A stretch of DNA of 64,000 bases, from assembly GCA_018711625.1 (NCBI GenBank), contig DVID01000009.1:62001-126000 (forward strand), written 5' to 3'. Within the stretch, counting starts at the first letter, position 1, and each line of letters begins with the position of its first letter. The position numbers were made by a program, and so were the translations under genes. The notes beneath the pieces are model-generated. The model saw only the letters and a list, made by a program, of their open reading frames with translations, ran no database searches and was not told the DNA's origin. Below are positions 1,273-41,030 of the stretch, piece by piece. The DNA comes from Candidatus Limicola stercorigallinarum. Its GTDB lineage: Bacteria > Actinomycetota > Coriobacteriia > Coriobacteriales > Coriobacteriaceae.

Positions 1273-1420
1273 CCAAAAACATTGCGATTTGTTGCAGTTT
1301 AGGGCACACCCTACGAGTAGACTTACCTTCGCGCGGAATAAAAACGCAGGTCACAGAGTTGGACTTTCCTCGTGTATCCGAGAGGTAGGGCCTAAACTGC
1401 AACAAATCGCAATGTTTTGG
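1273..1420. repeat. Palindromic intergenic repeat, copy 1
   Basis: Inverted arms ccaaaaacattgcgatttgttgcagtttagg / cctaaactgcaacaaatcgcaatgttttgg (about 30 bp); the reverse complement of the core aligns with the repeat at 40878-41030. Confidence 0.85.
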
Positions 1421-1520: not shown

Positions 1521-1596
1521 GTCCGCGCACGGGGCCCGTATATGGAAAAGGCAGACGCTGGTGCCTTCAAATTCCTGGAGCGGGCAACGGGACTCG
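1521..1596 (-). repeat. Distal direct-repeat copy of tRNA-Gly 3' end plus terminator
   Basis: Near-identical to 1701-1778 (gtccgcgcacggggcccg.atatg.aaaaggca...ctggtgccttcaaattcctggagcgggcaacgggactcg). Confidence 0.85.
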
Positions 1597-1700
1597 CGTA
1601 TTCGCTCCGCGAATCCGCAGCTTCGGATGCTTCGCATCCTCGCACGCTCGCTGGCAAACGCTCACGCGTTTGCTCAGCCTCGCGACCCCAGCGGGTTCGA
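1597..1700 (-). repeat. Three-hairpin cassette between tRNA-Gly 3' repeats (locus 1)
   Basis: Hairpins gcaaacgctcacgcgtttgc (1654-1673), ggatgcttcgcatcc (1625-1639), attcgctccgcgaat (1599-1613); homologous to the cassette at 36008-36108. Confidence 0.8.
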
Positions 1701-1757
1701 GTCCGCGCACGGGGCCCGAATATGCAAAAGGCACCATCGCTGGTGCCTTCAAATTCC

Positions 1758-1832
1758 TGGAGCGGGCAACGGGACTCGAACCCGCGAGTGTCAGCTTGGG
1801 AAGCTGATGCCTTACCACTTGGCGATGCCCGC
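1758..1832 (-). tRNA. tRNA-Gly (anticodon CCC)
   Basis: Minus strand GCGGGCATCGCCAAGTGGTAAGGCATCAGCTTCCCAAGCTGACACTCGCGGGTTCGAGTCCCGTTGCCCGCTCCA; 7-bp acceptor pairing, loop TTCCCAA, encoded CCA. Confidence 0.93.
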
Positions 1833-35866: not shown

Positions 35867-35942
35867 GGGGGTTTAGCTCAGCTGGGAGAGCGCGGGCTTT
35901 GCAAGCCTGAGGTCAGGGGTTCGATCCCCCTAACCTCCACCA
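35867..35942 (+). tRNA. tRNA-Ala (anticodon TGC)
   Basis: gggggtttagctcagctgggagagcgcgggctttgcaagcctgaggtcaggggttcgatccccctaacctccacca. Confidence 0.95.
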
Positions 35943-36007
35943 GGAATCTTCAACCTCGCTCCGGCGAGGTTTTTTCATAGACGTGTGACGCGCACGGGAT
36001 CGAACCC
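35922..36007 (+). repeat. Direct-repeat copy A: tRNA-Ala T-arm 3' part, terminator and inverted T-arm
   Basis: cgatccccctaacctccacca...cacgggatcgaaccc, 86 bp; 83/86 identical to 36109-36194. Confidence 0.9.
35952..35976 (+). terminator. tRNA-Ala terminator
   Basis: aacctcgctccggcgaggttttttc. Confidence 0.85.
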
Positions 36008-36108
36008 CGGTAGGGGCGCGGAGCGGAGCAAACGCGGGAGCGTTTGCCGCGTAGCGCGCGAGGGCGCGTGAGCGCCCGAAGCGGTTGGAGCGCGCCGCGG
36101 GCGCGCGG
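36008..36108 (+). repeat. Three-hairpin cassette downstream of tRNA-Ala (locus 2)
   Basis: gcaaacgcgggagcgtttgc (36028-36047), gggcgcgtgagcgccc (36062-36077), gcgcgccgcgggcgcgc (36090-36106); aligns with the cassette at 1597-1700. Confidence 0.8.
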
Positions 36109-36194
36109 CGATCCCCCTAACCTCCACCAGGAATCTTCAACCTCGCCCCGGCGAGGTTTTTTCATACACGTGCGACGCGCACGGGATCGAACCC
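36109..36194 (+). repeat. Direct-repeat copy B of tRNA-Ala 3' end plus terminator
   Basis: 86 bp, 3 mismatches to 35922-36007. Confidence 0.9.
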
Positions 36195-40877: not shown

Positions 40878-41030
40878 CAAAACAAAATCTCTTCGATTTG
40901 TAGCAGTTTGAGGCCCACCCCTCAAATACACTGGGAAAGTCCAACGCCGTGACCTGCGGGTTTGTTCTGCGAAAAGGCGGGTCTACTCGGAGGGTGCCTT
41001 CTAAACTGCAACAAATCGAAAAGTTTTTTG
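40878..41030. repeat. Palindromic intergenic repeat, copy 2, plus tail to about 41092
   Basis: ccaaaacaaaatctcttcgatttgtagcagttt ... aaactgcaacaaatcgaaaagttttttg; core ggaaagtccaacgccgtgacctgcg matches copy 1 on the opposite strand. Confidence 0.85.

What the first reader, a model, noticed from the sequence alone, without database searches (positions are those of the whole stretch)
1521..1832. Second instance of the same architecture at tRNA-Gly, with covariation between cassettes
Read on the minus strand, tRNA-Gly is followed by its terminator, an inverted T-arm (ggactcgaacccgc), a roughly 104-bp cassette, then a second copy of the Gly tRNA 3' end plus terminator (1521-1596 versus 1701-1778). 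The cassette aligns with the tRNA-Ala one: TCGAACCC..G....GGG.CGCG..GC.GAGCAAACGCG.GAGCGTTTGCC. Stem 1 is conserved (GCAAACGC/GCGTTTGC). Stems 2 and 3 differ in sequence but keep pairing (GGATGC/GCATCC versus GGGCGC/GCGCCC; ATTCGC/GCGAAT versus GCGCGCC/GGCGCGC). Each locus's flanking duplication and inverted T-arm match its own tRNA, not the other one. Independent recurrence argues against a chance tandem duplication and for selection on structure.
Basis: partly seen in the sequence, partly recalled or inferred. Interest (0 to 1): 0.85.

Follow-up and report, generated by a model that had tools for sequence, protein, structure and literature searches.

The report
tRNA-linked hairpin repeats in gut Coriobacteriia
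Behind this glycine tRNA gene sits a short non-coding hairpin module, flanked by a repeat of that tRNA's own 3' end and an 11-letter mirror copy of its T-arm; it is a far-flung version of the long-puzzling E. coli 'tRNA-linked repeats', here present behind many tRNA genes across a whole bacterial class.

Summary
Read on the minus strand, tRNA-Gly(CCC) (1832-1758) is followed by a terminator, an inverted T-arm (1704-1694), a hairpin core of about 98 nt, and a copy of the tRNA 3' end plus terminator. The same anatomy follows tRNA-Ala, and 8 of about 45 tRNA genes in this genome carry complete or truncated copies. A covariance model built from six copies finds relatives in 54 of 67 family genomes and 107 of 400 class genomes. 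In a checked set of 102 model hits, every one lies just downstream of a tRNA or tmRNA. The inverted T-arm matches the resident gene over positions 52-62 perfectly in 84 of 100 cases (18.8 expected by permutation), and stem covariation is strong. Near-identical cores occur at different tRNAs with resident-specific flanks, so cores move or convert between loci. No dedicated enzyme was found: Y1, RT and IS110 are absent from several or most carriers, and the only shared tyrosine recombinases are Xer-like. The architecture is that of E. coli tRNA-linked repeats (TLR/RtT), known since 1978 and without agreed function; the same models rank the E. coli tyrT and lys TLRs first. I read it as a new, class-wide variant of a known kind. 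The integrase/attP reading is not supported.

The parts
1758..1832 (-). tRNA-Gly (anticodon CCC), resident tRNA; T-arm positions 52-62 at 1782-1772
   Evidence: ARAGORN; Rfam tRNA 63.5 bits
1726..1749 (-). first intrinsic terminator (GGCACC..GGTGCC then TTTT)
   Evidence: sequence
1694..1704 (-). inverted T-arm GGACTCGAACC, exact reverse complement of resident tRNA positions 52-62
1596..1693 (-). hairpin core, 98 nt: small stem S1, S2 (1673-1654), S3 (1639-1625), S4 (1614-1600)
   Evidence: R2 hit 1712-1576 140.8 bits
1576..1595 (-). copy of tRNA-Gly 3' end from T-loop R57 to CCA (GAGTCCCGTTGCCCGCTCCA)
1521..1575 (-). copy of downstream flank with decayed second terminator (1567-1546), ending in GGAC of a lost inverted T-arm
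35867..35942 (+). tRNA-Ala (anticodon TGC), resident tRNA of the second element
   Evidence: ARAGORN
35996..36006 (+). inverted T-arm GGGATCGAACC of tRNA-Ala
36007..36109 (+). hairpin core of the Ala element
   Evidence: R2 hit 35988-36129 113.1 bits
36110..36194 (+). copy of tRNA-Ala 3' end (36110-36129), terminator, and a terminal inverted T-arm (36183-36194)

Best explanation
This is a Coriobacteriia version of the tRNA-linked repeats (TLR/RtT) of E. coli. It is a non-coding hairpin module of about 110 nt that sits, in sense orientation, between a tRNA gene's terminator and a second copy of that tRNA's 3' end plus terminator. Shown: the anatomy, its class-wide recurrence at tRNA and tmRNA genes, strict tracking of the resident T-arm by an 11-nt inverted copy (positions 52-62), covarying hairpins whose loop types and G-T bias point to folding of the sense strand, tandem arrays with a period near 184 bp, and near-identical cores at different tRNAs. 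Inferred: the core spreads and is homogenised between tRNA 3' flanks as a non-autonomous repeat, using T-arm sequence identity (strand exchange or template switching at the T-loop, junctions at 56/57 or 58/59) with host recombination or replication enzymes rather than a dedicated transposase, and the local tRNA 3' end and terminator are duplicated each time. [quoted passage not shown] coli rRNA-linked RrB.
For: Anatomy in window. Eight occupied tRNAs in the genome. Spread: 54/67 family genomes, 107/400 class genomes, other families with the same tRNA context. All 102 aligned hits lie downstream of a tRNA or tmRNA (the one tmRNA not called by ARAGORN, L208, is read directly). Inverted T-arm sharply limited to positions 52-62, perfect in 84/100 vs 18.8 permuted, follows the tRNA rather than the repeat in 15/16 discordant cases, and follows A52 at tmRNA and Leu-CAA. 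Covariation. Loops c(GNA)g or c(GNNA)g 256 of 427 on the sense strand vs 2 reversed; G-T 48 vs A-C 16. Cores 95-97% identical at different tRNAs. Occupancy and array size differ between the related genomes G004 and G006. Link to TLR: E. coli tyrT and lysQ/lysV have the repeat, hairpin core and inverted T-arm; model R1 ranks the four tyrT TLRs first in 190 kb of E. coli, R2 ranks tyrT then lysQ/lysV. TLR definition and RrB processing: PMC8144298.
Against: The model scores on E. coli TLRs are weak (E 0.004-0.43), and Rfam's RtT model does not hit the Coriobacteriia copies tried, so common descent with E. coli TLRs is not proven. No clean new insertion was polarised: the empty/filled differences could be losses by recombination between the direct repeats. 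Core similarity across tRNAs could be ectopic gene conversion without insertion at new sites. No transcription data. G-T pairs are rare in the cores (1.5%, against 6.9% in adjacent terminators), which sits poorly with a purely RNA function.
Confidence: 0.6

Rival explanations
1. [quoted passage not shown]
For: Covarying sense-strand structure; 11 nt antisense to the resident T-arm; E. coli RrA/B/F are transcribed by terminator read-through, processed next to the repeat, and bind Hfq and CsrA (PMC8144298).
Against: Patchy occupancy, arrays and loss between related genomes; G-T pairs rare compared with terminators; the core is found at many unrelated tRNAs, so no single regulon; other E. coli TLRs have no known function.
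Confidence: 0.25
2. Remnant or miniature of an integrative element: a tyrosine integrase recombines at the T-loop and the repeats are attL and attR.
For: Junctions fall in the T-loop, a known crossover place for tRNA integrases (own knowledge); tRNA fragments are common att relics (PMC9897764).
Against: The repeat includes the local terminator and tracks each locus; non-Xer recombinases are not shared by carriers; no recombinase next to tRNAs; no phage, plasmid or viral relatives; constant core of 81-109 nt.
Confidence: 0.06
3. REP/RAYT-like repeat moved by a Y1 transposase, or an IS110-like or reverse-transcriptase-driven element.
For: Short hairpin repeats at multiple loci resemble REPs in kind.
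Against: Y1 absent in carriers G004, G006, G025, G033, G294; RVT_1 in 1 of 13 and IS110 over cut-off in 1 of 13 genomes tested.
Confidence: 0.04
4. Ordinary slippage: unrelated tandem duplications plus palindrome correction, without function or mobility.
For: Arrays and partial terminal units; near-perfect stems are what palindrome correction would leave.
Against: One homologous core class-wide at different tRNAs; the sharp 11-nt boundary is not what neutral duplication leaves.
Confidence: 0.05

Closest known systems
E. coli tRNA-linked repeats (TLR), including RtT (Rfam RF00391) of the tyrT operon
   Same: Directly downstream of a tRNA (or 5S) gene; 3' part identical to the last 18-19 bp of that gene; hairpin core with c(GAA)g-type loops; arrays (178-bp period at tyrT); lysQ and lysV also carry a perfect 13-nt inverted T-arm and a repeated terminator.
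   Different: Coriobacteriia copies reach up to 20 per genome, carry an exact 52-62 inverted T-arm nearly always, repeat the terminator, and are not hit by the RtT model. At tyrT the inverted T-arm is degenerate, and it was not found in the short argV/lysT spacers.
RrA/RrB/RrF, TLRs after E. coli rRNA operons (PMC8144298)
   Same: Module between two terminators with a repeat of the upstream stable RNA's 3' end.
   Different: Linked to 5S rRNA and reported to bind Hfq and CsrA; no such data here.
tRNA-targeting integrative elements (attL/attR)
   Same: Partial tRNA 3' copy with a junction in the T-loop.
   Different: No recombinase, constant tiny size, repeat includes the local terminator and tracks each host locus.
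REP/BIME repeats with RAYT
   Same: Multi-copy structured intergenic repeats.
   Different: Strict tRNA location; Y1 transposase missing in several carriers.

Membership tests
tRNA-linked repeats (TLR) | Immediately downstream of a tRNA or rRNA gene, same orientation | tested here: met
   All 102 aligned model hits (tmRNA case L208 read)
tRNA-linked repeats (TLR) | 3' end identical to the last 18-19 bp of the upstream stable RNA gene | tested here: met
   20-nt copy from R57 to CCA in the window; copies found throughout
tRNA-linked repeats (TLR) | Several loci per genome, one to several units each | tested here: met
   8 tRNAs in this genome; arrays
tRNA-linked repeats (TLR) | Sequence/structure relationship to known E. 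coli TLRs | tested here: inconclusive
   R1 and R2 rank tyrT and lys TLRs at the top of 190 kb but at E 0.004-0.43
tRNA-linked repeats (TLR) | Transcribed and processed into a small RNA (shown for RrA/B/F) | not testable with these tools
   No expression data available
Rfam RtT (RF00391) | Match to the RtT covariance model | tested here: not met
   No RtT hit in the window (gathering) or in six elements up to E 5; E. coli tyrT and lys copies are hit
Integrative element with tyrosine integrase | Own recombinase gene or a recombinase shared by carriers | tested here: not met
   Only Xer-like pair shared, also in non-carriers
REP/RAYT | Y1 transposase in the genome | tested here: not met
   Absent in five carriers
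IS110 (bridge RNA) element | DEDD transposase in the genome | tested here: not met
   Above cut-off in 1 of 13 genomes
Retroelement | Reverse transcriptase in the genome | tested here: not met
   RVT_1 in 1 of 13 genomes

The most novel reading that the evidence does not exclude
The module is a T-arm-addressed mobile repeat: on arrival behind a new tRNA or tmRNA gene it acquires an 11-nt inverted copy of that gene's T-arm (an address written from the target) and duplicates the gene's 3' end and terminator, moved by host enzymes acting on a folded sense strand; TLRs across bacteria would be members of this class.
Probability: 0.2. Interest if true: 0.85.

Novelty: new variant of a known kind. 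Interest (0 to 1): 0.57.

Why it matters
E. coli tRNA-linked repeats were first described in 1978, and a 2021 paper still states that TLRs have no known function (PMC8144298). A class-wide set, with up to 20 copies per genome, an exact T-arm address and natural differences between related species, gives comparative material that E. coli alone does not, so their origin (movement or duplication), the nucleic acid that folds, and the role of the tRNA copy become testable. The inverted T-arm, also present at E. coli lysQ and lysV, was not mentioned in the one TLR paper I could read (search for 'inverted': 0 hits).

Tried and rejected
Chance tandem duplication: rejected by the shared core and the permutation test. 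The closing stem (inverted T-arm with the repeated tRNA end) as the reason for the match: rejected as the main cause, because where repeat and tRNA differ the inverted T-arm follows the tRNA in 15 of 16 cases. A pre-existing inverted T-arm as the target: rejected, none found without a core or core remnant. Cargo or a large element behind the same ends: none seen in the fetched loci. Phage, plasmid and viral relatives: none. Y1, RT, IS110 and shared non-Xer tyrosine recombinases: not found as a common factor. A first strict count suggested no G-T preference; a looser count with controls showed a mild one, so I do not claim the fold is DNA only. Early literature searches were uninformative until the TLR paper turned up.

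Full report
Observation. On the minus strand, tRNA-Gly(CCC) (1832-1758) is followed by an intrinsic terminator (1749-1726), the inverted T-arm GGACTCGAACC (1704-1694), a 98-nt core (1693-1596) with hairpins S2 (1673-1654), S3 (1639-1625) and S4 (1614-1600), then a copy of the tRNA 3' end from T-loop base R57 to CCA (1595-1576) and of the terminator region (to 1521). The tRNA-Ala element at 35996-36194 has the same plan.

Extent in this genome. The genome is a Coriobacteriaceae member; the nearest named genome hit by the cassette pattern is Collinsella sp. An2. A pattern search found four copies; reading the region behind every tRNA shows complete or truncated copies at Gly-CCC, Ala-TGC, Glu-TTC, Leu-CAG, Val-TAC, Gln-TTG, Leu-TAA and Thr-TGT.

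Extent elsewhere. A covariance model from six copies matches 54 of 67 genomes of the family, with up to 20 matches per genome, and 107 of 400 genomes of the class, including several other families. Fetched copies from those families show the same tRNA context, inverted T-arm and repeat. tmRNA genes are also used. Arrays of two or more units occur, with a period mostly 177-203 bp.

The T-arm address. In 84 parsed elements, the match between the inverted segment and the reverse complement of the resident tRNA is 95-100% at each of positions 52-62 and drops sharply outside. That set was partly selected on the match, so I repeated the test on 100 hits chosen by the model: 84 are perfect, against 18.8 when tRNAs are permuted (maximum 33 in 5000). 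Orthologous tRNAs with different T-loops have correspondingly different inverted copies (Lys, Glu), and the tmRNA and Leu-CAA cases with A52 are tracked. When the repeated tRNA end differs from the tRNA, the inverted copy follows the tRNA in 15 of 16 cases. In a few cases the inverted copy extends into the acceptor stem (L207, L141, L142). It never occurs without a core or core remnant.

Structure. In 102 aligned hits, 91.6% of cells pair (76.9% shuffled), 34 of 36 pairs show two-sided changes (20.2 shuffled), and partners slid by 1-3 columns fall to 40-51%. The alignment was fitted to the model, so the paired percentage leans towards it, but the contrast is large. Hairpin loops are c(GNA)g or c(GNNA)g in 256 of 427 cases and the reverse-strand forms in 2; G-T outnumbers A-C 48 to 16. 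So the sense strand is the one that folds. G-T pairs are 1.5% of positions in cores against 6.9% in the neighbouring terminators, which leans towards single-stranded DNA but does not exclude RNA.

Movement or conversion. Cores 95-97% identical occur at different tRNAs of the same or related genomes while flanks stay resident-specific. The related genomes G004 and G006 differ in occupancy at Gly-GCC and Gly-TCC and in array size at other tRNAs. These differences are not polarised: loss by recombination between direct repeats is as possible as gain. Where the two flank copies are nearly identical, their similarity often ends about 9-13 nt before the inverted T-arm or just after it. Junctions lie at 56/57 or 58/59 in the T-loop.

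Machinery. Y1 transposase is absent from five carriers, reverse transcriptase from 12 of 13 genomes, and IS110 above cut-off from 12 of 13. Among tyrosine recombinases only two Xer-like proteins are shared, including by non-carriers. Nothing similar was found in plasmids, phages or viral contigs. Host recombination or replication enzymes acting on T-arm identity is therefore my inference, not a result.

Known relatives. E. coli K-12 has the same plan. At tyrT, 178-bp units carry the tRNA 3' end, hairpins and a degenerate inverted T-arm. At lysQ and lysV a perfect 13-nt inverted T-arm, hairpin core, repeated tRNA end and repeated terminator are present. Rfam RtT matches the tyrT and lys copies but not the six Coriobacteriia loci tried. 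The Coriobacteriia models rank the four tyrT units first in 190 kb of E. coli, and the second model then ranks lysQ and lysV, at weak E-values. PMC8144298 names these sequences tRNA-linked repeats, 22 at ten K-12 loci, first described in 1978, with no known function apart from evidence that three rRNA-linked ones are processed RNAs that bind Hfq and CsrA.

Verdict. This is a real, recurrent and strongly constrained structure, best filed as a class-wide variant of the tRNA-linked repeats. The new points are its breadth, the exact 11-nt T-arm address, its use of tmRNA, and the exchange of cores between tRNA loci. The integrase reading is not supported, and the mechanism of spread remains inferred. 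The literature held is open-access only, so absence of prior reports on Coriobacteriia is not proven.

Noticed in passing
window 1276-1418 and 40896-41016: A 35-nt inverted repeat (core ATTTGTTGCAGTTT) enclosing about 73 nt; a second copy lies at 40896-41016, and similar ones are near other tRNAs of this genome. Looks like a dispersed palindromic repeat.
   Followed up: partly
L003 and L046: Another inverted repeat family (ATGGATGCGGTT[A/T]TCCGACGTTTT with its reverse complement) follows tRNA-linked elements.
   Followed up: no
L202, L203, L207, L208: Degenerate intergenic arrays (GATCCTAGTGC / TTCTCGCC and TCTCCCAAGC / GACG motifs) next to tRNA-linked elements in G004 and G006.
   Followed up: no
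L092, L099, L100, L109, L124, L139: Elements often lie at contig ends, so arrays probably collapse in short-read assemblies and copy numbers are underestimates.
   Followed up: no
L316:9329-9590, L315:6653-6900: E. coli lysV and lysQ tRNA-linked repeats carry a perfect 13-nt inverted T-arm and a repeated terminator.
   Followed up: yes
G053 (L067, L119, L131): One genome of a genus that mostly lacks the element carries seven copies, suggesting acquisition there or loss in its relatives.
   Followed up: no
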